Shown: one piece after another, positions 25,107-45,390 of the stretch
Layout of the letters: the number at the start of each line of letters is the position of its first letter
Numbering within the stretch: the stretch's first letter is position 1
NCBI GenBank assembly: GCA_003215475.1
Contig: QCKH01000012.1
Span: 1 to 51,360, forward strand
Direction: 5' to 3'
Length of the DNA stretch: 51,360 bases
Origin: Prochlorococcus sp. AG-409-L21
GTDB lineage: Bacteria > Cyanobacteriota > Cyanobacteriia > PCC-6307 > Cyanobiaceae
Program-made: the position numbers and the translations under genes
The notes under the pieces: model-generated
Seen by the model: only the letters and a program-made list of their open reading frames with translations
What the model was told of the DNA's origin: nothing
Databases searched by the model: none

Positions 25107-25344
25107 TTAATTGTACTCCTTCGTCAATCGTTTTAAAAGATCTATCTGGTAAAAATGCCCTTCTACCAACAATTACTGCCGGTAAATAGTCACTATTAAC
25201 TTTTTTAGAGAATGATTCATATAACATTTCATGTTCATCAACGTCCTTTTCTAAAAAATTAATATTCTCTTCTTTTAATTGTTCTTTTAAGTTATCACAA
25301 TGTGGACAACCTTTCATACTAAAAATTACTGGTGTATTTCCCAT
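25063..25344 (-). CDS. Glutaredoxin
   Basis: A 93-residue thioredoxin-fold protein. The active-site motif is C13-P-H-C16 and the cis-proline loop is LPAVIVG; together they identify a dithiol glutaredoxin. Phage glutaredoxins usually supply electrons to ribonucleotide reductase; no reductase gene is in the window, so the partner is unknown. The start overlaps the end of the SNF2 helicase gene by 26 bases on the same strand, so the two are one minus-strand operon. The 3' end overlaps the convergent gene at 24696-25106. Confidence 0.9.
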   Translation of the reverse strand: MGNTPVIFSMKGCPHCDNLKEQLKEENINFLEKDVDEHEMLYESFSKKVNSDYLPAVIVGRRAFLPDRSFKTIDEGVQLIKKYLQELSDHENR

Positions 25345-29339: not shown

Positions 29340-32159
29340 ATGGCTTCAACAAATAGAATTTTCGTTAGTCCAGGTGTTTTTACATCAGAAAAGGATTTAA
29401 CATTCGTAACAAGACAAGTAGGGGTTACCACTTTAGGTTTATTAGGGGAAACTCCAAAAGGTCCGGCATTTGAACCAGTATTCATTTCAAACTATGATGA
29501 ATTTACTTCTTATTTTGGTGGATTAAACCCTGAAAAATACAAAGGTAATGGTTACCCAAAATATGAATTAAATTATGTAGCAAAATCTTTTTTAACACAA
29601 ACTAACCAATTATATGTTAGTAGAGTATTAGGGTTATCTGGATATAAAGCAGGTAACGCTTGGTGTATTACTTTAGATGCAGCTGCTGATCCATCAACAG
29701 AGGCAGTAGCTTCAACTACTACATCTACATTTACTTATAGTGCAAGTACTGGTGGTACACCGGTAACAGTAACATTTGCAAACCCTTTATTACAAGAATT
29801 ATATGATGAAGGAGAAATTAGTGGTAGTTTTAGTGAATTAGGTACATTAGGAACTGGGGAAACTATTTCTATATCTTCACCAAAATATATAAAAACCGGA
29901 AGTGATTTTTCAGGTGCAACTTTTGATTTTACAATTGATGCTACCGGATCGGCTGGTGGTGGTTTTGTCACTGGTAGTTCATCAGGTACTGTAGTTACAT
30001 ATACTGCAACTTCTTATGACATTGATGGTAGTGTTGTTTCTACATTAAGATCAAGAGGTTCTTATGGTGGTGATGAAATATTAGATTTTACTGTAAGTGG
30101 TATTACAGATGCTAGTATGACAAATACAGATTCAATTGAAACTGACCCATTTGCAAACTTTACTATTAGTGGTACAACTAGTGGTGGTAATGATTTTGAT
30201 TATAATGTATCTTTAAGTACATCTAAAAAGAATTATTTACCAAATGTGTTTGGTGTTGGTTCACAAGATAAGGAAACTGAATTATTCGTAGAAGAATTAT
30301 TCATTAATAGTTTACAGGATTTATATAGTGCTGGTAAGGTTAGAGGGTTAGATACAACTTTCCTTAGAATTAGTGCAGATTCAACAAATAATTTAAATGA
30401 TTATGAAGAACAATATCAATCAGCGGTTTCACCATATGTATTATCAGAATTAAGAGGTAATAAATTACAAAGATTATTTAGATTTATTACAATTTCTGAT
30501 GGTAATGCAGCTAACAGAGATATTAAATTTTCAATTATCAATATTAAACCAGATAATAAAACTTTTGATTTAGTAATAAGAAGTTATAGTGATACTGACG
30601 CAAACTTAAGTGTTATTGAGAAATTCTCTAGTTTATCATTAGACCCAACAGACAATGGGTTTATTGGTAGAAAAATTGGTACTTCAGATGGAGAATTTCC
30701 ATTAAGAAGTAGATATATTATGGTAGAAATGGCAACAGACTACCCAACTAATGGTGTACCTGCAGGATTTGAGGGTGTAGAAGTTAGAGATTATATTGGT
30801 GATAGAACTGCGGTTATTCCACAAATTGAGTACGCAACTCAATATCCATCACTTAACAATTCACAACTTAGAAAATATTATTTAGGTTTAAATAGTACTA
30901 TTGGTGTGGATCAAGACTTCTTTGACTATAAAGGTTTAGATGGTGTAACTGGATTACCATTTACTGGTAAAACATCTGGTTTCCATTTAGATGTTAATGC
31001 AGAAGGTGCGGAAATATCGGCAGGTGATGATAGTTACGTACCAACACTACAAGTAGGTATTTCAGCATTTACCACAGACGCATCACTTATAGGTGGACCT
31101 TACGAAAAATTATCGGCAAGAAAATTCACATTTGCACCATATGGTGGATATGATGGATGGGACATCTATAGATTAGATAGAACTAACACTAACAATTACA
31201 CTAGAAATGGTAGTAAAGGTAGTGCAGGGTTAACACAAGGGGTATTTAAATCTTATATTACTTCTGAAGGTGATGACGGTATTACTTCTGATTACTATGC
31301 GTTCTTAGAAGGTATCTATACTTACAATAATCCTGAAGCGGTTAACATTAATGTTTTTGCAACACCAGGTTTAGACTTAAGAGATCAATCTTCATTAATT
31401 GATTCTGCAGTTGATATGGTTGAAAACGATAGAGCGGATTCATTATACGTTATAACTTGTCCTGATACAGATTCAGATGGTACAACAGTATTGACACCAG
31501 ATGAGGCGGTAGACGTATTAGAAGACTCTGGAATTGATAGTAACTATTCCGCAACTTACTTCCCTTGGTTACAGATGAATGATACTGAGAATAATCAGTA
31601 TATTTGGTTACCACCAACATTAGAAGTTGTTAGGAATATTGCGTTAACCGATAATGTTGCATTCCCTTGGTTTGCGGCAGCTGGTTTAAACAGAGGTACA
31701 ACAAACGCTATCAAAGCGAGAACTAAATTAACTTTAGACCAAAGAGATGACTTATATGAAGGTAGAATTAACCCGATGGCAACATTCTCAGATGTAGGTG
31801 TTGTAATATGGGGTAACAAAACCTTACAAACTAAGGATACTGCACTTAATAGAATCAACGTTAGAAGATTACTATTACAGGCGAGAAAACTTATTTCAGC
31901 AGTATCTATCAGATTGTTATTTGAACAAAATGATGATGTTGTAAGAAACCAATTCCTTTCATTAGTTAATCCAATATTAGATAATATTAGAAAAGAAAGA
32001 GGTTTAACTGACTTTAGAGTTGTGTTAGATGACACACCAGAATCTATTGACAGAAATGAATTAAACGGTAGAATATTCATTAAACCAACAAGATCTTTAG
32101 AATACATTAGTATTGAATTTAATATTACTAATACTGGTGCATCTTTTGATGATATTTAA
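29340..32159 (+). CDS. Contractile tail sheath protein (gp18-like)
   Basis: A 939-residue sheath subunit. The N-terminus (IFVSPGVFTSEKDLTFV...GLLGETPKGPAFEPVFISNYDEFTSYFGG) and C-terminus (INVRRLLLQARKLISAV...SLEYISIEFNITNTG) are typical of T4-type sheaths. T4 gp18 has 659 residues; most of the excess is a Ser/Thr/Gly-rich, repetitive beta insert at about residues 112-310, probably a surface protrusion. The gene is monocistronic by appearance: a promoter motif lies upstream and a strong terminator hairpin downstream, as expected for one of the most abundant proteins. Codon use includes more C-ending codons towards the 3' end than in neighbours, consistent with high expression. Confidence 0.93.
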   Translation: MASTNRIFVSPGVFTSEKDLTFVTRQVGVTTLGLLGETPKGPAFEPVFISNYDEFTSYFGGLNPEKYKGNGYPKYELNYVAKSFLTQTNQLYVSRVLGLSGYKAGNAWCITLDAAADPSTEAVASTTTSTFTYSASTGGTPVTVTFANPLLQELYDEGEISGSFSELGTLGTGETISISSPKYIKTGSDFSGATFDFTIDATGSAGGGFVTGSSSGTVVTYTATSYDIDGSVVSTLRSRGSYGGDEILDFTVSGITDASMTNTDSIETDPFANFTISGTTSGGNDFDYNVSLSTSKKNYLPNVFGVGSQDKETELFVEELFINSLQDLYSAGKVRGLDTTFLRISADSTNNLNDYEEQYQSAVSPYVLSELRGNKLQRLFRFITISDGNAANRDIKFSIINIKPDNKTFDLVIRSYSDTDANLSVIEKFSSLSLDPTDNGFIGRKIGTSDGEFPLRSRYIMVEMATDYPTNGVPAGFEGVEVRDYIGDRTAVIPQIEYATQYPSLNNSQLRKYYLGLNSTIGVDQDFFDYKGLDGVTGLPFTGKTSGFHLDVNAEGAEISAGDDSYVPTLQVGISAFTTDASLIGGPYEKLSARKFTFAPYGGYDGWDIYRLDRTNTNNYTRNGSKGSAGLTQGVFKSYITSEGDDGITSDYYAFLEGIYTYNNPEAVNINVFATPGLDLRDQSSLIDSAVDMVENDRADSLYVITCPDTDSDGTTVLTPDEAVDVLEDSGIDSNYSATYFPWLQMNDTENNQYIWLPPTLEVVRNIALTDNVAFPWFAAAGLNRGTTNAIKARTKLTLDQRDDLYEGRINPMATFSDVGVVIWGNKTLQTKDTALNRINVRRLLLQARKLISAVSIRLLFEQNDDVVRNQFLSLVNPILDNIRKERGLTDFRVVLDDTPESIDRNELNGRIFIKPTRSLEYISIEFNITNTGASFDDI

Positions 32160-33096: not shown

Positions 33097-33585
33097 ATGG
33101 CAGATTTATTAATGAGAATGCCGGTTCCTTATGAACCATTAAGAAAGAATAGATGGATTCTTAGATTTCCTGACGATTTAGGTATTCAAGAATGGTGGAT
33201 ATCTACGGCAAGTAGACCAAAATATACAAGTGATGAAGTATCAATTCCTTTCTTAAATACTGAAACTTATGTTATCGGTAGATTTAGATGGGAAACTATT
33301 TCTGTAACATTTAGAGACCCAATTGGGCCTTCTGCTACACAAGCATTAATGGAATGGGTAAGGTTACACTCTGAATCAGTAACAGGTAGACAAGGATATG
33401 CCGCTGGTTATAAAAAGAATGTAGAATTAGAAATGTTAGATCCTACAGGTGTTGTAGTACAGAAATGGATTTTGGAAGGAACTCAATTAAATGACGCTGA
33501 CTTTGGTGGGTTAGATTATAGTTCTTCTGATTTAGCAGATATAACTTGTACTTTAAGATTTGATAGAGCAATTAACGTATTCTAA
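33097..33585 (+). CDS. Tail tube protein (gp19-like)
   Basis: A 162-residue tube subunit, the same length class as T4 gp19 (163). RKNRWILRFPDDLGIQEWWISTASRPKYTSDE, ETYVIGRFRWETISVTFRDPIGPSATQALMEWV and the ending DITCTLRFDRAINVF are characteristic of the T4 gp19 family. It forms hexameric rings inside the sheath. It has its own promoter motif and a terminator directly after it, a monocistronic unit matched to the sheath gene. Confidence 0.92.
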   Translation: MADLLMRMPVPYEPLRKNRWILRFPDDLGIQEWWISTASRPKYTSDEVSIPFLNTETYVIGRFRWETISVTFRDPIGPSATQALMEWVRLHSESVTGRQGYAAGYKKNVELEMLDPTGVVVQKWILEGTQLNDADFGGLDYSSSDLADITCTLRFDRAINVF

Positions 33586-33653: not shown

Positions 33654-33668
33654 TAAAAAATGCATTTA

Positions 33669-34460
33669 ATGAAAAATAAATTCGATACCATTAAAGAACA
33701 ATCTAACAGAATAAAATCTTTATTTACTGAAGAAAGATTATATGGTAATTTAGTAAATGAACAAACCGATGAAGAATGTGTTACACAATTACAAACTAAA
33801 GGGTATCTTATTACTAAACCTACGGATGTTAGTGGGCAATATAGAACAAAACAATTAAAAAATTGTTTGGAATTAAGAAACGGAAAACCCACAAAAATGG
33901 GTCAGGTTTGGAAGTTTATCGAAAGTAGATCAGGTAATAATGTGAAAGTAGAGGTTGATGGTAGTTCAGGTTCTAATTGTAAATTAATTTTAAGTTCTAA
34001 ATTAAAGTGTGATGGACAAGAAGATACTACCATTGTTTCCATATATGGGGGTACACCATATACTAACACATTTAATTTACAAGTATTATATAATTTTGTT
34101 GACTCAGTAAAGTACAACCCATCAAGACTTATAGATGTAGGAATTAATTATTTAAGATATGAAGGATTTATAGAAATTCAAGAAGATGGTAGTGGTAACA
34201 TAAGAGGTATAGATTATAGAGATTTAAAAATAAATTCAATATATAAAGGTAATGTTAATATTACTGGTGCGTTAGACGTAAACGCAGATTTTACTTCATA
34301 TGAAGATAATAGTGGAACTACATCTACTTTTAAAGACTTTATTTTTAAACAAAAAAATATTAGTCAAAGTGGTAACTTTGAGAAATTAATTATGGATGAT
34401 TTTATAGAGTGTGAAAATCATAGAACTGCCACTATTTTAAAAAGGAAAACAGGATATTAA
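33669..34460 (+). CDS. Putative capsid-targeted internal protein A
   Basis: A protein of 263 residues from ATG 33669 (266 from 33660). I prefer 33669 because it gives a leader starting MKNKFDT and standard promoter spacing. The leader contains RIKSLFTE-ERLYGNLVNEQ: F-T-E and V-N-E are both plausible prohead protease sites, and the same RLYGNLV block recurs in the next gene. The mature part has Cys residues (CVTQLQ, KNCLELR, GSNCKLI) and a mixed beta composition with a motif ITGALDVNADFTSYED. No known family is recognised. It is first of three consecutive leader-bearing genes (spacing 11 bases to the next). Role as an ejected head protein is inference. Confidence 0.65.
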   Translation: MKNKFDTIKEQSNRIKSLFTEERLYGNLVNEQTDEECVTQLQTKGYLITKPTDVSGQYRTKQLKNCLELRNGKPTKMGQVWKFIESRSGNNVKVEVDGSSGSNCKLILSSKLKCDGQEDTTIVSIYGGTPYTNTFNLQVLYNFVDSVKYNPSRLIDVGINYLRYEGFIEIQEDGSGNIRGIDYRDLKINSIYKGNVNITGALDVNADFTSYEDNSGTTSTFKDFIFKQKNISQSGNFEKLIMDDFIECENHRTATILKRKTGY

Positions 34461-34471
34461 AAATTAAAAGG

Positions 34472-36610
34472 ATGAAAAATTTAAATGAACAAATTTTAAG
34501 GATGAAATCTCTAATGGGTGAAAGTAGACTTTATGGTAACTTAGTAGAGGATAAAGTTATGATAAATGAACAATCTTGGGGAAAGAGAATTATTAGAGCC
34601 ATTGCGGATGCAATACAAGTGGAAAAAAGAGCACTAAATAAAATTAATAAACAAATTGTCGATAATTATGAAAAAGCGTTAAAGGCAGCGGACAGTGGAA
34701 ACCCAAACGAAGCATTAAAATTATTTAAAAAAAATCAAGATTATATTAATAGTTCTAAAAATAAAGATAATATACAGGACTTATTAAAACTACAACAGAA
34801 AAGACTAGGAGATAAATACGATTTTTCTGCAGAAGACGTTCCTAATTTTGTCAATATGTATGTTACAATGCAAAAATTGATTAATGTGTCGTTAGCAAAA
34901 GGATGGGACTGGAATCAATCAGTTAAACAATTTGAAAAATCATTAGGTTTATCTAAAGAGCATGCCGATGCGGCAATATTAATTGTATTACATAATAAAC
35001 CGAAATTAAGAAAAAGATTAAGATATGCGCTAGATGATAGTGATTTATTAAAAAGAAAAGACGTGATTACTAACCCTGACTTAAACAAGGGTAGTAAAAT
35101 TTTTAACATAACCGCAGAAAATGCTTGGGAATTGACACGGAAAAACCTTGATTCTGATTGGATTAAATTATCTAAGAAGTTTGATGATGTTCTAGAGGAT
35201 ATTGATTATAAGCAAATATCTAAGGAGGTTTCCGATAGTAGTGAAAATATTCTTAAAAGGATTGAGAATGCGTTGGACTGGAAGAAATTAGGTAATACGA
35301 TAGCTAAAGTGAGTCTTTGGTATCCACTAGTAGTAGGTGCAAGAATATTCAAATTTTTATTCATTTACGCAAGAATACCAAGGGCGGCTAAATTTTTTGA
35401 TGATTTAGGTTTGGGATCGGTGTCTAAAATATTAGGTAGTATTCCTTTTTTCTCTACAATGTATTCGTCATATTGGGCTTGGGTATTCTATCAACATAAT
35501 AAAAATATCAAATGTGATGGAAATGGTTGTCATAGCATAGCAGCAGAAAAAGAGGAAGGTAGATCTAAAGAAGAAGATTTTTGGGTAGAGAATAGGTGGA
35601 AATTTGCGGGAATGGTTGCAATGGAATGGCTTAATAATCACCCCTATAAACTATTTGCAGAATTTTCGGCACCTTATACCGGATTAGATATCCCTTTTCG
35701 TGCAGCCAAAATGGATTTAGAAGATTTAGAGAAAGTGATAAAACAAAAATTTATTAATAGTACTATGTGTTGTCCTAAATCAGAATTGAAGCCAGTTGAG
35801 GGTGTTCCCGATGATGAAGCAATAAAGAATAAAATATGGAATGAAAAATTTGCACATGAGGGATGTGAGAAATTAAATAATCCGGGATTTGGATGTAAGT
35901 TTCCAGATGGAAAACCAACATGTGAAGAATTATACAAAGTACTTATAGATCCAAAAACATCTCAAGAAATGTTTATAGAACTTAACAAAAAAAATGGTAT
36001 GGGTAATGGTAGAGCAAATTATTTGACACGAATTATGGAAAAGCAGTTTAACCCATTTGGGTTATCAGAGGATGAGGAAATAACCCCTACTAGTGGGCCA
36101 AAAGGGTTGGCGTTTTTTATTCAAAATACTATTTCTGAAAAAACAATTTGTGATTATGTGAAAACTGATAAGTTACCTGTGAAAAAATATCAAAAAGAAA
36201 TAGATGAGTTATTAGCAAACAAAATGGAAAATGTGGATCCTAATGACTATATTGAAGAAAAAATTATAGTAATTAATTATGGACCAGTTCAGGACACATA
36301 TGATATAGTTACCAGTAATATTAAAAGTGGGAAATTAGATTGTGAGGATTGGAAAAATTCTGCTTATGTAGGTAACAAAAAAACACATAGTGAAGAAGAA
36401 AAGAATAATATAAAAGATGCTTTGAAGTCTTACGATACTTTCAGTGAATATTATTGTGAGTATATGACTAAAAAAGCTGGGACAACAAAAGAAGGTAAAG
36501 AAGTATTTAGAATGAAAGATTGTATTAAAGCAGTAGAAGGTGCATGTGAAGGAACACCCTTTGACAGTCTATTTAACGAAAAAACTATAGAAGATGAATT
36601 TGGTGGATAA
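34472..36610 (+). CDS. Putative capsid-targeted internal protein B with membrane-capable segments
   Basis: A 712-residue protein of unknown family. The leader MKNLNEQILRMKSLMGE-SRLYGNLV is homologous to that of the previous gene, with candidate cleavage after E17 and after E33 (MINE-Q). The N-terminal 270 residues are helical and charged. Residues about 276-300 (AKVSLWYPLVVGARIFKFLFIYA) and 318-341 (SKILGSIPFFSTMYSSYWAWVFY) are hydrophobic enough to span a membrane. The C-terminal half is hydrophilic with paired Cys (CCPKS, CEKL, CKFPDGKPTC). This resembles an ejection protein that would insert into the host membrane, but homology is not established. The end overlaps the next start by 17 bases. 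Confidence 0.65.
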   Translation: MKNLNEQILRMKSLMGESRLYGNLVEDKVMINEQSWGKRIIRAIADAIQVEKRALNKINKQIVDNYEKALKAADSGNPNEALKLFKKNQDYINSSKNKDNIQDLLKLQQKRLGDKYDFSAEDVPNFVNMYVTMQKLINVSLAKGWDWNQSVKQFEKSLGLSKEHADAAILIVLHNKPKLRKRLRYALDDSDLLKRKDVITNPDLNKGSKIFNITAENAWELTRKNLDSDWIKLSKKFDDVLEDIDYKQISKEVSDSSENILKRIENALDWKKLGNTIAKVSLWYPLVVGARIFKFLFIYARIPRAAKFFDDLGLGSVSKILGSIPFFSTMYSSYWAWVFYQHNKNIKCDGNGCHSIAAEKEEGRSKEEDFWVENRWKFAGMVAMEWLNNHPYKLFAEFSAPYTGLDIPFRAAKMDLEDLEKVIKQKFINSTMCCPKSELKPVEGVPDDEAIKNKIWNEKFAHEGCEKLNNPGFGCKFPDGKPTCEELYKVLIDPKTSQEMFIELNKKNGMGNGRANYLTRIMEKQFNPFGLSEDEEITPTSGPKGLAFFIQNTISEKTICDYVKTDKLPVKKYQKEIDELLANKMENVDPNDYIEEKIIVINYGPVQDTYDIVTSNIKSGKLDCEDWKNSAYVGNKKTHSEEEKNNIKDALKSYDTFSEYYCEYMTKKAGTTKEGKEVFRMKDCIKAVEGACEGTPFDSLFNEKTIEDEFGG

Positions 36611-37769
36611 AAAAATAATTATAATTACAGAGTCTCAATATAATAGATTGTTCTTAGAACAAACTGCATACACAAGACATTTAGATAGAGCATATTCTAC
36701 TTATGATGGTGCAGTTAAACAAATGGACGCAAATAGAGAAGTTGTTGAATTTATAGGTCATATTTGGGATAATTATAAACATGAAATTATAGATGTGGCA
36801 GCTATTGTGGTATTAGCTATACCGGTGGCTGGGCCATTCATTTCAATAGGTTTAGAATTAGCCAATGCAGGATTATATTTTGCAGAAGGTGATGAAGTAA
36901 TGGGTGGATTATCTGCATTATTAGCAGTTGTACCTGGAGGAATGATTGCAAGGAGAGCATTAAAGAAATCGGGTATAGTAAAACAAATTGATAATGTAAC
37001 TGAATGGATGTTGAAACAACAAAAAGCAGGAAAAACAGTTACGAAAGAACATATAGAAAAAAAATTAAGGAAAGAATTAAGTGAAAAAACTATAAAAAAT
37101 AATGATAAACTAATTAAAAATTATTTTGATGAGGTATTACCAACACTAACTAAAGGGACTGCTAAAAAACACGCCGCCAAATTACAGAAGTTAATAAATA
37201 AAACACAAGGATATTGGAAAGATTTTGTATCAAACGAAAAATTGTTTAAAAAATTCTTACTTGCGAATAATGATAGTACTTATAAAGCATATATTGCGTA
37301 TCTTAGAAGTGTTAGTATGAATGAGTCTTTTTGGGGTATGGCAATATATTCATTATTAATGGCTTTTGGTGATGATGTTGTAACCTTTGTTATTGAAGAA
37401 TCTCCGTATGTACAAAAAAAACTTAAGGATTGGAAAAAATCAAGATTAGAAGATGACGCTAAAAGAGGTAATATTAGTAGTATCGTTAGGAATGACGGTT
37501 ATCCATGGAAAGAAACTAAAGAAATGTTTATGTCGGATGGTTCTGCAGAAGATAATAAACTTTTAAAAGGTGCGTGGAAGGCTGGTTGGAGACCTGATTC
37601 CGGAAAATTTGTACCTCAAGAATTCTGGACAGATTCTTATAGAAAAATGATAGAAGAAAAGGCGAGTTCTTTAGATAATTTTAACTTTAATAGAGAAGAT
37701 GATACCTTAATGATGGATAAGTATAACACCATTGATCAAAATGTTTTAGACTCAATGTTAGATTTATAA
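36594..37769 (+). CDS. Putative capsid-targeted protein C with pretoxin-like hydrophobic domain
   Basis: A 391-residue protein. The leader IIITES-QYNRLFLEQ is of the ITESQ..RL type common at the N-termini of virion proteins of large phages, with I-T-E as likely cleavage site. Residues 66-117 form a Gly/Ala-rich hydrophobic block, IPVAGPFISIGLELANAGLY followed by FAEGDEVMGGLSALLAVVPGG, whose pattern (P.aG, nAg.Y.a.GD, agLsal..vPgG) resembles the hydrophobic pretoxin domains of bacterial polymorphic toxins. The remaining 270 residues are Lys-rich and helical without a toxin motif I can name. It is the third of three leader genes and overlaps its predecessor by 17 bases, which suggests coupled translation. 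Confidence 0.65.
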   Translation: MNLVDKKIIIITESQYNRLFLEQTAYTRHLDRAYSTYDGAVKQMDANREVVEFIGHIWDNYKHEIIDVAAIVVLAIPVAGPFISIGLELANAGLYFAEGDEVMGGLSALLAVVPGGMIARRALKKSGIVKQIDNVTEWMLKQQKAGKTVTKEHIEKKLRKELSEKTIKNNDKLIKNYFDEVLPTLTKGTAKKHAAKLQKLINKTQGYWKDFVSNEKLFKKFLLANNDSTYKAYIAYLRSVSMNESFWGMAIYSLLMAFGDDVVTFVIEESPYVQKKLKDWKKSRLEDDAKRGNISSIVRNDGYPWKETKEMFMSDGSAEDNKLLKGAWKAGWRPDSGKFVPQEFWTDSYRKMIEEKASSLDNFNFNREDDTLMMDKYNTIDQNVLDSMLDL

Positions 37770-38133: not shown

Positions 38134-38916
38134 ATGGAAAATCAACATATACCTCAAGTAGATCCTACTTACGTACCATCAGAATATCAAGTTCCCTATG
38201 ACGTAATAGATTTACCTTCTCAAGGGTTATTATACCCTAATAAAAAATCTACAGTAAAAGTAGAGTATTTAACTGCGTTTGATGAAACTGTTTTATCTTC
38301 ACCAAATATTTCATCCAATGGTGGAATAATGGATATATTAATAGAAAGAAAAGTTAAAGAATTAGGTTTTAACCCATTAGATTTATTATATAGTGATAGA
38401 GTAGCAATATTATTATATTTAAGAACCACTGCGTTTGGTCCGGAATATACACAATTAGTTTATAACGATAGTACCGAAAAATTAGAAGAAGGGGTGATAG
38501 ACCTTTCTCAATTAAAACAAAAAAAATTAACAGTTAAACCAGACGAAGATGGTTTATTTGATTTTACTTTACCCCAAAGTGGTAAAACTATTAAATTTAG
38601 ATTTTTAACGGGTAGAGATGAAAAAGATATAGACGTTTTAGATAAAAACTATATGGAAAAAAATAAAACAGATATTTCTAATCGTTTATTTTTTAGGTTA
38701 GAAAAACAAGTTATGTCCATAAACGGTGAAACTGACAAAATAAGAATATCTAATATATTAAAAAATCTTTCAATTATTGATTCGAGAAAACTTAGAAAAT
38801 ATATTGGCGATATTGAACCAGGAATAGACTTCGAAACAGAAGCACGGATGCCGGGGGGAGCGTCCGTGAGTTGCTTTCTTAGATTTAACACATCTTTTTT
38901 CTTTCCTGAACTCTGA
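38134..38916 (+). CDS. Baseplate hub/tail assembly protein (T4 gp26-like), frame-0 product
   Basis: A 260-residue protein ending at TGA 38914-38916. PYDVIDLPSQGLLYPNKKSTVKVEYLTAFDE, LLYSDRVAILLYLRTTAFGPEYT, FDFTLPQSGKTIKFRFLTGRDEKDID and the ending FNTSFFFPEL are the pattern of the gp26-type hub proteins of T4-like and larger phages (T4 gp26 is 208 residues). It lies two genes upstream of the tape measure, where tailed phages usually keep a tail assembly chaperone made in two lengths by frameshifting. The last sense codon and stop are CTC TGA, a classic +1 shift sequence, and the +1 frame is open for 51 more codons. A GC-rich hairpin lies inside the 3' end of the gene. Confidence 0.75.
   Translation: MENQHIPQVDPTYVPSEYQVPYDVIDLPSQGLLYPNKKSTVKVEYLTAFDETVLSSPNISSNGGIMDILIERKVKELGFNPLDLLYSDRVAILLYLRTTAFGPEYTQLVYNDSTEKLEEGVIDLSQLKQKKLTVKPDEDGLFDFTLPQSGKTIKFRFLTGRDEKDIDVLDKNYMEKNKTDISNRLFFRLEKQVMSINGETDKIRISNILKNLSIIDSRKLRKYIGDIEPGIDFETEARMPGGASVSCFLRFNTSFFFPEL
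38843..38868 (+). other. GC-rich RNA hairpin inside the gp26-like gene
   Basis: CACGGATGC (38843-38851) pairs with GCGTCCGTG (38860-38868) over nine base pairs (one T-G) around the loop CGGGGGGA. The codons across it (CGG, CCG, GGG, GCG, TCC, GTG) are ones this AT-rich phage otherwise avoids, so the RNA structure seems to be conserved for itself. It ends 42 bases before the CTC TGA shift site. No T run follows closely enough for a terminator. Confidence 0.65.
38911..38916 (+). other. Putative programmed +1 frameshift site CTC TGA
   Basis: A Leu CTC codon is followed by TGA, the arrangement used by the bacterial release factor 2 gene (CTT TGA). A shift over T38914 continues with GAG TAC TTA into a 51-codon open frame. 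The +1 frame is closed upstream by TGA at 38867-38869, so the shift must occur between 38870 and 38914. Confidence 0.6.
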
Positions 38917-39070
38917 GTACTTAATTACAGTACATAAACATTCGGGATTTTTGAGTAAATATTATAACTTTAGTTATAGTGATATTATGAAAATGCCTAC
39001 TTTTTCTAGAATTATGTTTATACAACAAGCTACTCAAGAAATAGAAAAAACAAAAGAAAATAAAAAATAA
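38915..39070 (+). CDS. +1-frame extension of the gp26-like protein (chaperone-like tail)
   Basis: Fifty-one codons and a TAA follow in the +1 frame, giving a 311-residue fusion. The segment reads EYLITVHKHSGFLSKYYNF, then SYSDIMKMPTFSRIMFIQQA. The f.s..dI..MP..e...F...A pattern resembles the second domain of tail assembly chaperones produced by frameshift in other contractile phages. There is no suitable start codon for most of this stretch; the first ATG (38987) would drop half of it. It ends just before a promoter motif at 39073. It may alternatively be a degraded separate gene or reflect a sequence error. Confidence 0.55.
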   Translation, partial: EYLITVHKHSGFLSKYYNFSYSDIMKMPTFSRIMFIQQATQEIEKTKENKK

Positions 39071-39095: not shown

Positions 39096-39728
39096 ATGAC
39101 AAAATTTTCTAATAAAGATATTAAAGATATTATTGCACTCTTAGATGAACAAATAGATTTAAAAGAGCAAAGAAAAAGATTTAAACTTGGTTATAGTGAA
39201 ACCCCAAGCACAAAACAAAGTAAGGATGCTGAAGATTATGTACAAAGTCATGGTATAGATTCCGGAATAGACAAAGCCGCATCGGACATACAAAGTGCAT
39301 ATGGGGATATAAAAAGTAAATTAGGTAAATTTAAAAGGATTAAGGGTAATGATAATGTAAATACTAGTAGTAAATCACAGAGTAATGCTAGTAAATTTAA
39401 AGAGGTACAAGGGGGTAGAGAATTTAAAATAGAATGGAGTGCCATTGACAATGGTAGTAGTGCGGTTAATTTAACTGCAGATAATAAAAATGCTACCTTA
39501 CAAGCCTCTGGTGGGGCGTCAGGTAAATTTAAACCTTTAGAAGTTAGTAATAATGCTTTAAAATGTGAAGGGACTGGAGGTCAAACAGATAATAATTTTT
39601 GGTTAATTTCATTCACCAATGAAGTAGAAAACGCACAAAATAATAATGGTAAAATTACATTATTAGAAGATAGGGCGGGTAATATTCGTAGTAATACTAT
39701 TGATTGGGCAGGTAAAATAACTACTTAA
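39096..39728 (+). CDS. Leader-bearing virion protein of unknown function
   Basis: A 210-residue protein between the gp26-like gene and the tape measure. The N-terminus MTKFSNKDIKDIIALLDE-Q fits the hydrophobic-x-Glu prohead cleavage rule after L-D-E. The middle is Ser/Lys/Asn-rich and probably disordered (SSKSQSNASKFK); the C-terminal 100 residues look like a beta domain (FKIEWSAIDNGSSAVNL, NFWLISFTNEVE). No family recognised. Start chosen because of the 15-base spacing to the promoter motif. It is 21 bases from the tape-measure gene and probably co-transcribed with it. Confidence 0.6.
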   Translation: MTKFSNKDIKDIIALLDEQIDLKEQRKRFKLGYSETPSTKQSKDAEDYVQSHGIDSGIDKAASDIQSAYGDIKSKLGKFKRIKGNDNVNTSSKSQSNASKFKEVQGGREFKIEWSAIDNGSSAVNLTADNKNATLQASGGASGKFKPLEVSNNALKCEGTGGQTDNNFWLISFTNEVENAQNNNGKITLLEDRAGNIRSNTIDWAGKITT

Positions 39729-39749: not shown

Positions 39750-41696
39750 ATGCCTACATCAGACGAGTTAAATAAGCAGTTAGAGGTAATGAAAAAACAA
39801 ACTTCTGAGTTAAATACTCAAGAAAGTTATTACAATTCAATTAAAGGTGTATCTGATGAAACAAGAAGAGGTATAGAAGAATCTATACAAAAATCTAACG
39901 CTATGTTAAAAGCGTTAAAAGATGAAGCAGAGACACTATCTGGTGCCGCAAAAACCGCAAAACTAGAACAGATTGATCTTTTAGAAAAACAAAGAGATGA
40001 ATTATCAAAATTAAATAAAGAATATAGAAAACAATACACAATTGTAGGTAGAATAAGGGGTGAATTCGCAGCACAACGCACAGAATCATTAGATTTTGTT
40101 AAAACACAAGCTGCGTTATTTAATTATTCAGAAAAAATTGCACATGAATATAGAGATATTGCGAGAGATGTAGGGTTAACTAGGGATCAAGCACATGGTG
40201 TAGGAGTTGCCTTTAGAGCTGCTTTACCTGAAGTTTTAGCTATGGGTGGTGAAATGTCTGATATCACTAATTTATATGAAAAATTTATGGAACAGAGTGG
40301 TAGATTAAGATTTTTCAGTGAAGAAGATATTATTATCATGGATTCTATGTCTAGGGCAACTAAATTAATGCCAACCGAGATAGCATCAATGGCAGAAACA
40401 TTTGATTTAATGGGTCAGAGTGTAGAAACGATGAATGAAAGTATTGTAGATGTATTTGACGCATCACAAAAAGCAGGATTAAATTCAACAAAAGTTATAA
40501 AAACATTACAATCAAATATTAAACAAATGAGTTCGTTTTCTTTTGTTAATGGGGTTAGAGGAATGACTGAAATGGCAAGACAAGCGGTTAAAATGAGGAT
40601 TGAGGTTAGTGATGTATTATCTATGGCAGATAAATTTTATCAACCAGAAGCTGCAATTGAAGCAGCAGCTAATTTACAAATGTTAGGGGGAGATATTGCT
40701 AAGGCATTTGGTGACCCATTTGAAACTATGTATTTGGCTAGAAACAAACCAGAGGAGCTAGCTAAAAGACTACAAACTATGACAGAAAATATGTTACAGT
40801 TTAACGAACAATCTGGTGAATTCGAATTACCTGCAGAAGCAAGAATGCAATTAAAAGCGGCTGGTGATCAATTAGGTATTAATGTTGATAAAATGACCGA
40901 AATGGCTCGTCAATCATCTAAAATAAGTAAAATTAAGATGAATATTGAGGGTAATGCTTTTGATGAAGAAGTTAGAGAGGGTATTGCAGGAATGGCTAAA
41001 ATGAAAGATGGGAAGTGGGTAGTAGATTTTTCATCACCTACAGGTGAAAAAATGGAGATTGACATTAGAAATACTGATCAGTTAAGAGAGGCGGTAGATC
41101 AAGGGTTATTAGATACTCAAAAAAGTGATAGTGATTTATTCAGAGATATTGCAATGAATACGCAAACAATGTCTGAAAGAATGACTAGTATGGGGGAAGC
41201 AACTCGTGCTACTGCAGTACAAGCAACTGATTTTCATCAAATTTTTGAGGAAGCGTTAGGACCACAAATAGAAAAAATGGAAAAGGAAACTCAAAAAATG
41301 GTTTCAGGTATAATGAGTACTTACAACCCTAATGTAATGGCGAATGAAGGGTTAGTGGCATTACAAGATTGGGCACAAGGATTAACTACTATGGATCCTA
41401 GTACACTTAATATTAATTTAAATAATGGTATGAATTTACCTAATGGTGGTGGTGGAGGTGGAGGATTAAATTTACCATCTAATACTAACTTAACACCACA
41501 ACAAATTCAAGAAATGAATGAAGTTTCATATAACGGACAATTAGATATAAATCTTAATATTGGGGGTCAGTTAGCTTCTGCATTTAATACGCCAGAAATT
41601 AAAAATATGATTGGTGCTGAGGTTAATAAAGTACTTTCCAATGGTTTGGAAGTAGTAACAGACGGATCAAATATCAATGTAGTTTTAACTACCTAA
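39750..41696 (+). CDS. Tape measure protein candidate (gp29-like position)
   Basis: A 648-residue protein. The first 130 residues are predicted coiled coil (LNKQLEVMKKQTSELNTQE, then KLEQIDLLEKQRDELSKLNKEYRKQ). The middle (GVAFRAALPEVLAMGGEMSDIT..., MTEMARQAVKMRIEVSDVLSMADKF, then AAIEAAANLQMLGGDI) has the alternating Ala/Met/Gln helical pattern and GGD/FG..ET loops of tape-measure proteins. A Gly-rich linker (NGGGGGGGLNLPS) precedes a beta C-terminus. At roughly 0.15 nm per residue it would specify a tail near 100 nm, similar to T4 (gp29, 590 residues). It lies between assembly-protein and baseplate genes, as expected. Confidence 0.7.
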   Translation: MPTSDELNKQLEVMKKQTSELNTQESYYNSIKGVSDETRRGIEESIQKSNAMLKALKDEAETLSGAAKTAKLEQIDLLEKQRDELSKLNKEYRKQYTIVGRIRGEFAAQRTESLDFVKTQAALFNYSEKIAHEYRDIARDVGLTRDQAHGVGVAFRAALPEVLAMGGEMSDITNLYEKFMEQSGRLRFFSEEDIIIMDSMSRATKLMPTEIASMAETFDLMGQSVETMNESIVDVFDASQKAGLNSTKVIKTLQSNIKQMSSFSFVNGVRGMTEMARQAVKMRIEVSDVLSMADKFYQPEAAIEAAANLQMLGGDIAKAFGDPFETMYLARNKPEELAKRLQTMTENMLQFNEQSGEFELPAEARMQLKAAGDQLGINVDKMTEMARQSSKISKIKMNIEGNAFDEEVREGIAGMAKMKDGKWVVDFSSPTGEKMEIDIRNTDQLREAVDQGLLDTQKSDSDLFRDIAMNTQTMSERMTSMGEATRATAVQATDFHQIFEEALGPQIEKMEKETQKMVSGIMSTYNPNVMANEGLVALQDWAQGLTTMDPSTLNINLNNGMNLPNGGGGGGGLNLPSNTNLTPQQIQEMNEVSYNGQLDINLNIGGQLASAFNTPEIKNMIGAEVNKVLSNGLEVVTDGSNINVVLTT

Positions 41697-41916: not shown

Positions 41917-44900
41917 ATGCCTGGAATTTTAAACGAGACATTATACACAACAAGTTTTGGAGTTTTAAGTACAGAAGACCTAAGAACAGAGTTACTTAAA
42001 AGAAATTTACCACCACCGGTTAATAGAACTTTAGAACAAGGTGGATTAACTTCCCAACTTGAAGATATTGGGAAAGTTATAAATATTCCTGTTGGTGGAA
42101 CACAAAATGAAAATAACGTAATATCTTATAATGAAGATGAAAATATTATAACTCAAGGTGAAATTTATAGAGACACACAAAATGTTAATAATAATAGATT
42201 TATACCTGAAAGAGACGAGTATAATGAATACGGTGTAAATACACCATCAGAACCTTATCCTAATTCAGGAGAAAAAGACAGGTTACCTTATCCAACAAAT
42301 TCAAATATAGATAGTTTTAGTTTATTAAGTACTGGTGACAATACATATGTGTCTTTTCCATTCAATGTAATTGATAAAATTTCTAAATTAACTTTCAATA
42401 ATGAAAGTTCTTTAGGGATTATAGGGGCAAACTCCTTAAGAACAAATGTAATAGCAAAAACTGCACAAATAGAAGAAAAAATGTCTAGTGATTTAAATAA
42501 ATTTGCTATTACTTATTTCCAACCACCCGAAAATGAGGCAAATGAATTCCAAAATAGGATGAGAGGTGAACCATTAGTAGAAAATAGTTTACCAAACGAA
42601 GCGGTAGGTTGGCAAGAATATAATAGACTAAATAAAACAAATAAATTAGGTAATATTTCAACAGGTAATCAAACAAACCCTGTATTATCCACCGAACAAA
42701 GAAATAATAAATTAATTGAAAGTACGGGAATAAATCAAACTACGTTTTTATTTAACGCGTTAGGTTTGAATTTATATGTACCATCTTATACAGATAGAAG
42801 ATTATCAGATACCTCAAATGCGGGTACAAATAGTAGATATTATATTGGAAGTGAGAGAAGTACTAATAGAGGAAGTAAAATAGTAACTAATTTTACTGCA
42901 GATGAATTTAACGGTGCTGACGGAGTTCAATCAGAGCAAGTGGGGCAAACTACCGTAAATGAAGATTTCTATTGGGAATTCAAAGATAATAACGATTTTA
43001 ACAATAAAACTATCTTATCTGAGACACAAAATTTAGTAAATAATTTTCCAGATGATGTTTTTATTGATCAAACTAAAAAATATTTTAAAGATAAAGTTAA
43101 AGGTAGGTTAATAAGTAGAGGTAATGCTATTAGTAGTGAATCTTTTGAATCTGCAATACAAAACGGTAAATTTTGTAGGGTTTGGACACCAGATAACCCT
43201 TATAAGTATAGTAATGCAATAAGAAAAAGTGGTCTATTTAGTTCTGACGATGTATCTAAACCTGGATTTTCTGTATCATCAGATAACGCTTCATTAAGTG
43301 TCTTAGGTAGTAATGGTATGGTTAAATCCTACCCAACTGCAATCGATAGGACAACAACTTTTAAAAAATATATGTTATCTATAGAAAATTTAGCGTGGGC
43401 AGATAATTTAGCAGATTTAAGTTTAGATGAAATTGGACCTGGTGACCCTTTAAGTAGAAATAAAGGTAGAATTATGTGGTTTCCTCCTTATGATTTAGGA
43501 TTTGATGAAAGTTTAAGTGCAAATTGGACTAAAACTGATTTTATTGGTAGGGGTGAACCAGTTTATACTTATAATAATTCTACAAGGACTGGACAATTAA
43601 AATTTAAAATTTTAGTTGATCATCCTAGAGTAGTTAATGCATATAGAGGAAGACGAACAAATGAAATAGAAAGATTTTTCGCTGGTTGTATTTCTCCTGA
43701 AGAATTTTTGGATTTATTAGATAATAGTCAAGGTGTGAGTGAGTCCACTAAAAGTGATATAGAAAAAAAATTAAACTTACAAATACAACAATCTACTTCT
43801 ACAAATTATAGTGCTAGTGAAAAATATACTTTACCATTTGAAGAGAACATAAGTAGTGGTGTAACTATAGACAGTGGAAGTATAACATCATTTTTAAACC
43901 AACAAAAAAATAGTGATAAATCTGTTAAAATTATTGTTAATGGTTATGCATCTCAAGATGAAACTAACCCTAACGTTTTAGCAAAAAATAGGGCAGCAGA
44001 TATTAAATCACAAGTAGAAGTTATAGTTAAAGGTATCAGTAACATAACTTACACCATAGTTAGTTCTTCTAAAGTAATTGACATTAGTGGTGACCCTAAT
44101 AGTAGGAGAGTAGATTTAAAAATTAGTTATGATGCAGTAGGTGATAGTACTGCACAACATAAATCTACAGAGGTAGATAGTAATTTAGTTACTTTACCTT
44201 TAGATTCTCAGATAGTAGATAACTTAAGGATTGATGAAACAAGGTATTTTGACTTTATTGGTGAAGAGTATCCTGAATATTTTGAAACAATATCTGAAAA
44301 AATAAAATATTTTCATCCTGGTTTTCACTCTACTACACCCGAAGGATTAAACACAAGGACAACCTTTTTACAACAATGTGTTAGACAGGGTCCTAGTGTA
44401 TATGATAAAAATGATTCTACTGGTATAAAACCACAAAACTTAGCCTTTGGTAGACCACCTGTATGTATATTAAGAATTGGTGATTATATCAACACTAAAA
44501 TATGTATAAATAGTGTTAATATTACATATAATGCCGGTTCTTCTCCACAATGGGACTTAAACCCTGAAGGTATAGGGGTACAACCTATGATGGCAGATGT
44601 AACTTTATCTATAGATATAATAGGGGGTCAATCTTTACAAGGTCCAATAAGTAGACTACAAAATGCATTATCATTTAATTATTATGCTAATACTGAAATG
44701 TATGAAAGGAGAAGTGATCAATTGGAGGTAGATGCATTTATTGGTGCGAGAATTATAAACGGTAGAAGTAGTTTATTTAATGAATTATTACCTGGTGTTG
44801 CTAATGCTGCACAAAAACTATCATTATTAGGTGATTCCCCTAAAAATACTTTAAAACAAGAAGTACCACTTAATCAAATGGACGAAAATAATAATCCAAC

Positions 44901-45390
44901 AAACTTTAATCAACCTAGTATACCTACCGATACAATAGTTATTAATATAAATGGCGTTAACCAATCAGTGGTGGTGGAAACAATACTTAATGGTAGTTTA
45001 AGACCTTTAAATGATCCAATTAGAGTAATTATTACAGACAGTTTAACAGATATAATACATAAAGATGAATCATACACTAGTGCAAGTAATACAATATCTT
45101 TAGCAGGTATTCCTACATTTAGTCAATCTTTCATTAAATCAGCACAAATAGTAGATTTACAAAACCAAACTACTACATTGGAAGCTGAATACGATTCATT
45201 AAATAACAATAGTGCGTATAATATCAATAGAAAATCAGAAATACAATCGGAAATAAGTACCATTAGTAAAGAAATTTCTAGTTTAAACTCACAAATAACA
45301 AATGCAAATGTGAGAGTGATTTATAATTTAGATGGTGAAGAATTATCTAGAACCCAATCATTTACTATTAGTGAAAATAAATTAATATAA
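41917..45390 (+). CDS. Baseplate tail-tube/initiator protein with embedded OmpA-like domain
   Basis: A 1157-residue protein, first in a three-gene baseplate operon. The N-terminus (LYTTSFGVLSTEDLRTELLKRNLPPPVNR) and the region near residues 842-940 (FGRPPVCILRIGDYINTKIC, SVNITYNAGSSPQWDLNPEG, then LQNALSFNYYANTEMY) recall the tube-initiator/baseplate tail tube proteins of large myophages (functional counterparts of T4 gp48/gp54). Residues about 635-738 are an OmpA/MotB-like domain: LPFEENISSGVTI, GYAS at 676-679, NPNVLAKNRAADIKSQ and SRRVDL at 729-734, the usual peptidoglycan-binding fold. The C-terminus has a coiled coil near 1090-1140. Five bases separate it from the next gene. Confidence 0.65.
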   Translation: MPGILNETLYTTSFGVLSTEDLRTELLKRNLPPPVNRTLEQGGLTSQLEDIGKVINIPVGGTQNENNVISYNEDENIITQGEIYRDTQNVNNNRFIPERDEYNEYGVNTPSEPYPNSGEKDRLPYPTNSNIDSFSLLSTGDNTYVSFPFNVIDKISKLTFNNESSLGIIGANSLRTNVIAKTAQIEEKMSSDLNKFAITYFQPPENEANEFQNRMRGEPLVENSLPNEAVGWQEYNRLNKTNKLGNISTGNQTNPVLSTEQRNNKLIESTGINQTTFLFNALGLNLYVPSYTDRRLSDTSNAGTNSRYYIGSERSTNRGSKIVTNFTADEFNGADGVQSEQVGQTTVNEDFYWEFKDNNDFNNKTILSETQNLVNNFPDDVFIDQTKKYFKDKVKGRLISRGNAISSESFESAIQNGKFCRVWTPDNPYKYSNAIRKSGLFSSDDVSKPGFSVSSDNASLSVLGSNGMVKSYPTAIDRTTTFKKYMLSIENLAWADNLADLSLDEIGPGDPLSRNKGRIMWFPPYDLGFDESLSANWTKTDFIGRGEPVYTYNNSTRTGQLKFKILVDHPRVVNAYRGRRTNEIERFFAGCISPEEFLDLLDNSQGVSESTKSDIEKKLNLQIQQSTSTNYSASEKYTLPFEENISSGVTIDSGSITSFLNQQKNSDKSVKIIVNGYASQDETNPNVLAKNRAADIKSQVEVIVKGISNITYTIVSSSKVIDISGDPNSRRVDLKISYDAVGDSTAQHKSTEVDSNLVTLPLDSQIVDNLRIDETRYFDFIGEEYPEYFETISEKIKYFHPGFHSTTPEGLNTRTTFLQQCVRQGPSVYDKNDSTGIKPQNLAFGRPPVCILRIGDYINTKICINSVNITYNAGSSPQWDLNPEGIGVQPMMADVTLSIDIIGGQSLQGPISRLQNALSFNYYANTEMYERRSDQLEVDAFIGARIINGRSSLFNELLPGVANAAQKLSLLGDSPKNTLKQEVPLNQMDENNNPTNFNQPSIPTDTIVININGVNQSVVVETILNGSLRPLNDPIRVIITDSLTDIIHKDESYTSASNTISLAGIPTFSQSFIKSAQIVDLQNQTTTLEAEYDSLNNNSAYNINRKSEIQSEISTISKEISSLNSQITNANVRVIYNLDGEELSRTQSFTISENKLI

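What the first reader, a model, noticed from the sequence alone, without database searches (positions are those of the whole stretch)
38870..39070. Putative programmed +1 frameshift (CTC TGA) makes two lengths of a gp26-like tail protein upstream of the tape measure
Seen: the gp26-like frame ends CTC TGA, and shifting over one T continues directly as EYLITVHKHSG... for 51 codons to TAA 39068-39070, ending in a helical chaperone-like tail (SDIMKMPTFSRIMF). There is no adequate independent start. Known: most tailed phages make a tail assembly chaperone in two lengths by frameshift just upstream of the tape measure (lambda G/GT, P2 E/E'), usually -1; CTT TGA is the +1 site of release factor 2. 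Inference: this T4-type phage uses a +1 site in its gp26-like gene, a situation I do not know to be described for that family.
Basis: partly seen in the sequence, partly recalled or inferred. Interest (0 to 1): 0.85.

Follow-up and report, generated by a model that had tools for sequence, protein, structure and literature searches.

The report
Frameshifted tail chaperone of T4-type phage
A virus of bacteria appears to make a short and a long version of one tail-building helper protein by having ribosomes skip forward one base near the end of the gene; relatives seem to use either this forward skip or a backward skip at the same spot.

Summary
The gp26-like ORF (38134-38916) ends CTC TGA, and the +1 frame continues to TAA 39068-39070. 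Of 80 viral-contig relatives, 78 reach the junction; all 73 with an uncut tail have a +1 frame open for at least 133 nt past the stop, against 25 of 272 ends of other long open frames. The tail is conserved and under purifying selection; 0 of 114 further loci have it in frame 0.

The slip site was misplaced. The stop and the codon before it vary, while a Phe UUU followed by a pyrimidine, 15 nt upstream, is kept in 8 of 8 clade sequences; in the wider +1 group the site is UUU UUU UGG in 56 of 78. UUU_U at 38896-38899 is the likely site. An upstream hairpin with two covarying pairs (38844-38867) may stimulate it.

The protein is a relative of T4 gp26/gp51, known tail assembly chaperones. Other relatives have the tail in -1, after U_UUU_UUC/U, at the same Phe-Phe pair. 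I found no report of +1 in this family, but could not read the key paper. All evidence is comparative; no protein was measured.

The parts
38134..38916 (+). gp26-like tail assembly chaperone, short form (frame 0, 260 aa, stop TGA 38914-38916)
   Evidence: phrog_150 baseplate hub E 3.5e-7; PF12322 16.9 bits, under its cut-off of 24.5; tblastn to immuto, SP-15 and others; AlphaFold2 pLDDT 88.8 and BFVD matches to T4-like hub assembly proteins
38896..38899 (+). likely slip site UUU_U (Phe codon 255 plus the skipped base)
   Evidence: UUU followed by T (7) or C (1) in 8 of 8 distinct clade sequences; the exact codon is inference
38900..39070 (+). +1-frame C-terminal extension of the long form (56 codons and TAA 39068-39070), predicted long form 311 aa
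   Evidence: tail HMM built without the window clade finds it at E 1.4e-7, best of 1380 shuffles 0.11; window-L001 pN 0.13, pS 0.35, from 16 and 9 changes
38844..38867 (+). conserved RNA hairpin upstream of the slip: arms 38844-38851 and 38860-38867, G-rich loop 38852-38859
   Evidence: 8 sequences, 93.8% of cells paired, 7 cells changed on both sides, covariation 0.304 (each reached by 1 of 500 shuffles); only 2 of 8 pairs covary, and the count of such pairs is reached by 329 of 500; same helix by RNAalifold
38872..38885 (+). TGCTTTCTTAGATT, identical at DNA level in the clade although the codons for C F L R F could vary
   Evidence: in all 5 members found by protein search; the 3 further distinct members were fetched by a pattern that contains it, so they do not count as support
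38911..38916 (+).
   Evidence: varies within the clade
39750..41696 (+). candidate tape measure gene by position and size only
   Evidence: no significant similarity to the immuto tape measure protein
33097..33585 (+). tail tube gene (T4 gp19-like), genomic context
   Evidence: PF06841 E 0.018, below cut-off
29340..32159 (+). contractile tail sheath gene, genomic context
   Evidence: PF17482 32.9 bits over cut-off 26.9

Best explanation
The gene encodes a T4 gp26/gp51-type tail assembly chaperone in two lengths. Most ribosomes stop at 38914 and give the 260-aa short form. A fraction shift one base forward while tRNA-Phe sits on UUU 38896-38898, re-pair with the overlapping UUU 38897-38899, and read on in the +1 frame to 39070, giving a 311-aa long form with a conserved C-terminal extension. 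An RNA hairpin 28 nt upstream and a conserved stretch between it and the slip site may raise the rate of shifting. By analogy with lambda G/GT, the short form would coat the tape measure protein and the extension of the long form would recruit tail tube subunits. Shown by comparison: the conserved +1 tail, its selection, the kept UUU-pyrimidine, the covarying hairpin. Inferred: that it is ribosomal, +1 rather than -2, the exact codon, the role of the hairpin, and the division of labour.
For: 78 of 80 relatives reach the junction with an FFWP-like motif; codons TTT TTT TGG 56, TTT TTT TA[CT] 10, TTT CTT TGG 5, others 7; 73 of 73 uncut +1 extensions reach 133 nt, against 25 of 272 controls. A second set of 114 classifiable loci: 71 tails in +1, 43 in -1, 0 in frame 0. 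+1 and -1 tails are homologous (hhalign probability 97.7, E 1.9e-12, 53 columns). Tail under purifying selection: pooled pN/pS 0.28 over 14 non-overlapping pairs. The clade DNA pattern hits 13 viral contigs, all 13 at this junction, 8 distinct sequences, all with UUU then pyrimidine, which is not part of the pattern. Upstream hairpin with covariation; a downstream hairpin with covariation in 11 other relatives chosen for it. Fold: among the 50 of 107 PDB matches listed, HK97 tail assembly chaperone 2ob9 has the highest Foldseek probability, though weak (0.23, E 2.3).
Against: No protein or reporter data. In the window's clade the codon after the slip is UUC, UUA, CUA or UGG, and UUC is not an obviously slow codon, so the cause of pausing is unclear. 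U_UUU_UUC in the window also fits the classical -1 heptamer, yet its -1 frame closes two codons on. Only 2 of 8 hairpin pairs covary; four bases of its 3' arm are fixed by the pattern that fetched 3 of the 8 sequences; two of five measures are unremarkable (329 and 68 of 500 shuffles). Codon conservation in the last window before the junction (0.78) is matched elsewhere in the ORF (0.78 and 0.77). Single-sequence folds of the junction are not unusual. No downstream helix is found in the window's clade. No complement of 9 nt or more to TGCTTTCTTAGATT in the bin's 16S gene. PF12322 matches only below its cut-off, and no PDB match is significant.
Confidence: 0.8

Rival explanations
1. The shift happens at CTC TGA: a ribosome waiting at the stop codon slips +1, as in release factor 2.
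For: A stop codon is slow; in 8 of 8 distinct clade sequences the stop lies at the same place, 15 nt after the UUU; the reading is consistent with the open frames.
Against: The codon before the stop is CTC, TTC, ATC or ATA and the stop TGA or TAA in the clade; CUC, AUC or AUA shifted +1 would re-pair badly; in the wider +1 group the stop lies at varying distances while UUU UUU UGG is found in 56 of 78.
Confidence: 0.1
2. The +1 frame is reached by a -2 shift, as in phage Mu, giving one extra residue.
For: +1 and -2 cannot be told apart by frame; T7 runs allow a -2 re-pairing in most loci; -2 is known for Mu (review PMC5009743, passages).
Against: TTC TTT TGG (2 loci; L181 and L215), GXN1 TTC TTT CGT and LR756508 TTT CTA do not allow a good -2 re-pairing but allow +1; nor do L115, L117 and L118 of the window's clade. 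This is reasoning on base pairing, not a measurement.
Confidence: 0.1
3. RNA polymerase slips on the T-run, and mixed mRNAs give both proteins.
For: T7 runs in most relatives; transcriptional slippage makes two protein lengths in Citrobacter tssM (title and start of abstract in a search listing only).
Against: Runs are short in several members: TTTCTTTGG (5 loci), TTCTTTTGG (2 loci), and 5-6 T in L115, L117 and L118 at most; conserved flanking hairpins fit ribosomal shifting better.
Confidence: 0.06
4. The tail is a separate small gene with its own start.
For: In several named phages part of it is annotated as a hypothetical gene: immuto, Mel-JY01, SP-15, 121Q, CBB. A TTG at 38951 could start 39 codons of the window's tail (read).
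Against: No strong start in the window; the likeness of the +1 peptide begins upstream of the frame-0 stop, by eye; LIS04, GXN1 and RaK2 have no gene annotated there.
Confidence: 0.03
5. Sequencing or assembly error.
For: Only that the site is a T-run.
Against: Same junction in independent metagenomes and isolates.
Confidence: 0.01

Closest known systems
T4 gp26 and gp51 (PF12322, phrog_150, phrog_634), tail assembly chaperones according to Vladimirov, Gautam and Davidson 2022 (Virology 566:9-15; I saw only the title and citing passages)
   Same: Same family by profile; the short form ends near the FF motif as T4 gp26 does (..KEFFELL), and gp51 carries a C-terminal extension as the long form does; gp26 and gp51 resemble each other
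   Different: T4 uses two genes; its gene 26 is followed by no tail in either other frame. gp51's extension is not better than shuffles by my tail HMMs; the link runs through phrog_634
Relatives of the same gene with the tail in -1: XacN1, RAS14, LR756511, 121Q, RaK2, CBB, XaC1, PA5oct, Atu_ph07, Phosso, Vibrio 2.275.O, SCTP-2, C48C1 (Kyanoviridae)
   Same: Same gene family, same FF codon pair; as alignments the tails are homologous, though singly only 8 of 13 beat the best shuffle
   Different: Opposite direction; T_TTT_TTC or T_TTT_TTT in 13 of 13
Lambda G/GT and the -1 tail chaperone frameshift of other tailed phages
   Same: Short and long chaperone from one gene among the tail genes
   Different: -1 rather than +1; kinship of the folds not established here. 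Review PMC5009743 names T4 as the exception (passages)
Release factor 2 site CUU UGA and influenza PA-X site UCC_UUU_CGU
   Same: P-site tRNA moves +1 onto an overlapping U-rich codon; 5 relatives have CTT_T before GG
   Different: A-site codon is a sense codon, not a stop; no Shine-Dalgarno element shown. PA-X site from the abstract; RF2 details recalled
+1 or -2 shifts in other tailed viruses (HSTV-2, Mu)
   Same: +1 frame used for the long form
   Different: No kinship tested here; taken from passages of PMC5009743

Membership tests
T4 gp26/gp51 tail assembly chaperones | Profile match to the family | tested here: met
   phrog_150 E 3.5e-7 over residues 18-257
T4 gp26/gp51 tail assembly chaperones | Pfam PF12322 above its curated cut-off | tested here: not met
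   16.9 bits against 24.5; SP-15, 121Q and C48C1 pass, immuto has no match
T4 gp26/gp51 tail assembly chaperones | Predicted fold like other members | tested here: met
   BFVD: SP-15 hub subunit TM 0.79/0.83; T4-like hub assembly proteins among the best hits
T4 gp26/gp51 tail assembly chaperones | Binds tape measure and tail tube, absent from the virion | not testable with these tools
   needs experiment
Programmed-frameshift tail assembly chaperone (lambda G/GT kind) | Conserved out-of-frame extension of the short gene under selection | tested here: met
Programmed-frameshift tail assembly chaperone (lambda G/GT kind) | Gene lies just upstream of the tape measure gene | tested here: inconclusive
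   by annotation in immuto and LIS04, likely in SP-15, whose next large ORF is called only a putative tail protein; not so in 121Q, RaK2 or CBB, where it lies near the portal gene; in the window by position only
Programmed-frameshift tail assembly chaperone (lambda G/GT kind) | Fold of a known tail assembly chaperone | tested here: inconclusive
   HK97 2ob9 is the most probable of the 50 PDB hits listed but only 0.23, E 2.3, TM 0.48 on the target
Programmed-frameshift tail assembly chaperone (lambda G/GT kind) | Two protein lengths made in vivo | not testable with these tools
   needs mass spectrometry
RF2-type +1 site (CUU UGA with upstream Shine-Dalgarno) | CUU before a stop codon | tested here: not met
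   window has CTC TGA; clade varies
Classical -1 heptamer site | -1 frame open after the heptamer | tested here: not met
   U_UUU_UUC is present, but the -1 frame reads CTT TCC TGA and stops after two codons (read)

The most novel reading that the evidence does not exclude
One orthologous gene of T4-type phages has reversed the direction of its programmed frameshift at the same Phe-Phe codon pair. A large, mostly environmental clade, including this window, shifts +1 at UUU followed by a pyrimidine (most often UUU_UGG); relatives in giant phages and in one Kyanoviridae record shift -1 at U_UUU_UUC/U; T4 carries two genes. Because AAT TTT TTC TTT CC goes with a +1 tail in the window's clade (L035) and AAT TTT TTC TTC CC with a -1 tail in others (L174 and kin), direction would be set largely by surrounding RNA, such as the covarying hairpins found here, not by the slippery run alone.
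Probability: 0.6. Interest if true: 0.72.

Novelty: new variant of a known kind. Interest (0 to 1): 0.56.

Why it matters
[quoted passage not shown] The survey fits the later view that gp26 and gp51 are short and long chaperones, and shows many relatives that seem to make both from one gene by a shift in either direction. Nearly identical slip sequences with opposite outcomes would give a natural test of what sets the direction of ribosomal frameshifting. In practice the long form goes unannotated: in the 18 annotated phage records seen, none shows a joined gene.

Tried and rejected
CTC TGA as slip site: rejected because neither the codon before the stop nor the stop is constant in the clade. 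Independent start for the tail: none strong. RF2-type site: not met. A -1 reading of U_UUU_UUC in the window: the -1 frame closes at once. Structure over the whole junction in single-sequence folds: z -1.47 and -0.47. Unusual codon conservation before the junction: 0.78, equalled elsewhere in the ORF. Downstream hairpin as a general feature: whole-set mean z -1.25 (n 78) against -0.25 in controls (n 234), but absent from the window's clade. Pairing of TGCTTTCTTAGATT with the bin's 16S: no exact complement of 9 nt or more. Pseudoknot between the G-rich loop and CTTTC: possible by eye, untested. First DNA pattern ATGCCGGGGGGAGCNTC: 2 of 6 viral hits real (window and the L001 contig), 4 chance. 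Genome contigs: protein query found no relative; 16 of 16 DNA-pattern hits were chance. T4 gp51 against the tail HMMs: not better than the best shuffle; RM378: +1 frame open but tail similarity not detected; 5 of 13 -1 tails not better than the best shuffle against the +1 HMM. Tape measure homology of the 648-aa ORF: none. Host of the bin: not determined.

Rows left out or selected: L067 (contig ends) and L098 (no motif) of 80; 5 of 78 tails cut by the contig end; L170 (contig ends) of 115. L032 is the L001 contig again. The 20 phage records were chosen by me, one or a few per group, from the hits; the -1 scan re-found some. One search used tail HMMs built in part from the same phages. The 11 loci were picked because they showed the hairpin, so their share of paired cells is biased. 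Three of the 8 sequences came from a pattern that fixes part of the 3' arm; the two covarying pairs lie outside it. Pairs for pN/pS were limited to tails of equal length and 60-97% identity.

Full report
What is there. The window is a 51,360-base viral contig (IMGVR_UViG_2716884754_000004) held as contig C12 of a 1.34 Mb bin. The gp26-like ORF 38134-38916 follows the sheath (29340-32159) and tube (33097-33585) genes, with three other large ORFs in between, and precedes a 210-aa and a 648-aa ORF. It stops at TGA 38914-38916; the +1 frame continues to TAA 39068-39070. The family match is phrog_150, baseplate hub, E 3.5e-7; Pfam PF12322 is under its cut-off. An AlphaFold2 model from 28 sequences has mean pLDDT 88.8 and matches predicted T4-like hub assembly proteins; no PDB match is significant, HK97 tail assembly chaperone being the most probable of the 50 listed at 0.23.

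Is it real? A 90%-identical relative in another metagenome has the same arrangement with TAA for TGA. Of these, 78 reach an FFWP-like motif near the frame-0 end. The +1 frame stays open 133 nt or more past the stop in 73 of 73 that are not cut by the contig end, against 25 of 272 control stops in the same loci. A tail HMM built without the window's clade finds the window tail at E 1.4e-7; the best of 1380 shuffled sequences has 0.11. Pooled over 14 non-overlapping pairs, pN/pS in the tail is 0.28, with differences by codon position 174, 113 and 353. Two further scans gave 115 loci; 1 ends early, and the other 114 have the tail in +1 (71) or -1 (43), none in frame 0.

Where is the slip? In the 78 loci the codons are TTT TTT TGG 56, TTT TTT TAC 7, TTT CTT TGG 5, TTT TTT TAT 3, TTC TTT TGG 2, TTT TTT TTC 1, and four of the window's clade. 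The distance from there to the stop varies. A clade-specific DNA pattern found 13 viral contigs, all at this junction, with 8 distinct sequences. In all 8 the first Phe codon is TTT followed by T or C, whereas the codon before the stop is CTC, TTC, ATC or ATA and the stop TGA or TAA. The +1 peptide upstream of the stop (SFLNSEY) lines up by eye with FGLxxEY of the wider family, where the same residues can lie before the frame-0 stop. The window's likely site is UUU 38896-38898 with one T skipped; the long form is 311 aa either way.

RNA elements. In the window's clade an 8-bp hairpin (38844-38851 with 38860-38867) around a G-rich loop is kept: 93.8% of cells pair, 7 cells change on both sides and the covariation score is 0.304, each reached by 1 of 500 shuffles, with slid controls at 0.085 or less; but only two of the eight pairs covary, and two of the five measures are unremarkable. 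RNAalifold finds the same helix. TGCTTTCTTAGATT lies between it and the slip in all 5 members found by protein search. A sliding count of codon conservation is high there (0.78) but as high at two other places in the ORF. In 11 other relatives, picked for it, a 6-bp hairpin begins 6 nt after the second Phe codon, with all cells paired and a covariation score reached by 0 of 500 shuffles. Single-sequence folds of the window junction are not unusual.

Two directions, one gene. Of 20 phage records looked at by frame, 7 have the extension in +1 (immuto, Mel-JY01, LR756508, LIS04, SP-15, GXN1, RM378; similarity weak for GXN1 and not detected for RM378) and 13 in -1. All 13 of the latter have T_TTT_TTC or T_TTT_TTT. 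+1 and -1 tails are homologous as alignments (hhalign probability 97.7); singly, 8 of 13 -1 tails beat the best shuffle against the +1 HMM. On a quick tree of 92 sequences, 66 of 69 +1 rows, the window among them, lie on one side of a branch with support 98, and direction changes at least twice on the tree as drawn, the starred branches alone forcing one; the root and the long-branched rows (T4, RM378, C48C1) are unsure.

Comparison with print. T4 gp26 ends at its FF motif and gp51 runs on; phrog_634 links gp51's C-terminus to the last 34 codons of the -1 tail of C48C1, annotated there as a separate hub assembly catalyst. This agrees with Vladimirov et al. 2022, known to me by title and from citing passages: PRFect says some T4-like phages carry one short gene and one long fusion gene, and the Adele paper says poly-T -1 signals are known in T4-like chaperone genes. 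A 2016 review says -1, -2 or +1 is used in different tailed phages and excepts T4 from G-T frameshifting (passages). My ten paper searches, of open-licence papers only and judged from listings, showed no report of +1 in this gp26 family; the Vladimirov paper itself was not readable, so priority is uncertain.

Verdict. A programmed frameshift in a T4-type tail assembly chaperone, +1 frame, correctly spotted but placed 15 nt too far downstream. New variant of a known kind. The most interesting part is the opposite direction seen in relatives on almost the same slip sequence. Everything here is comparative; direction (+1 against -2), level and site need a peptide or a reporter.

Noticed in passing
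33660-37769: Three consecutive large ORFs between the tube gene and the gp26-like gene; the first two start with a similar motif (RIKSLFTEERLYGNLV / RMKSLMGESRLYGNLV). By recall this resembles capsid-targeting leaders of T4-like internal proteins. No Pfam match over cut-off.
   Followed up: partly
41917-45390: 1157-aa baseplate-region ORF with a stretch (VNGYASQDETNPNVLAKNRAADIKSQV) that by eye resembles an OmpA-like domain; the Pfam scan gave no such hit.
   Followed up: no
39096-39728: 210-aa ORF of unknown family between the chaperone and the candidate tape measure gene; no Pfam match and only weak PHROG matches.
   Followed up: partly
20767-23535 and 25319-27145: Family B DNA polymerase (+) and SNF2-type helicase (-) next to the structural genes.
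   Followed up: partly
2-20347: Five very long ORFs, repetitive and fibre-like by eye, make up over a third of the contig.
   Followed up: no
L026:3277-3381: The short 'baseplate hub assembly catalyst' gene of Kyanoviridae phage C48C1 looks like the 3' part of the -1 extension of the gp26-like gene rather than a gene of its own.
   Followed up: partly
L098:3001-3735: Relative whose frame-0 ORF stops at 3676, inside the region of similarity; possible error or broken copy.
   Followed up: no
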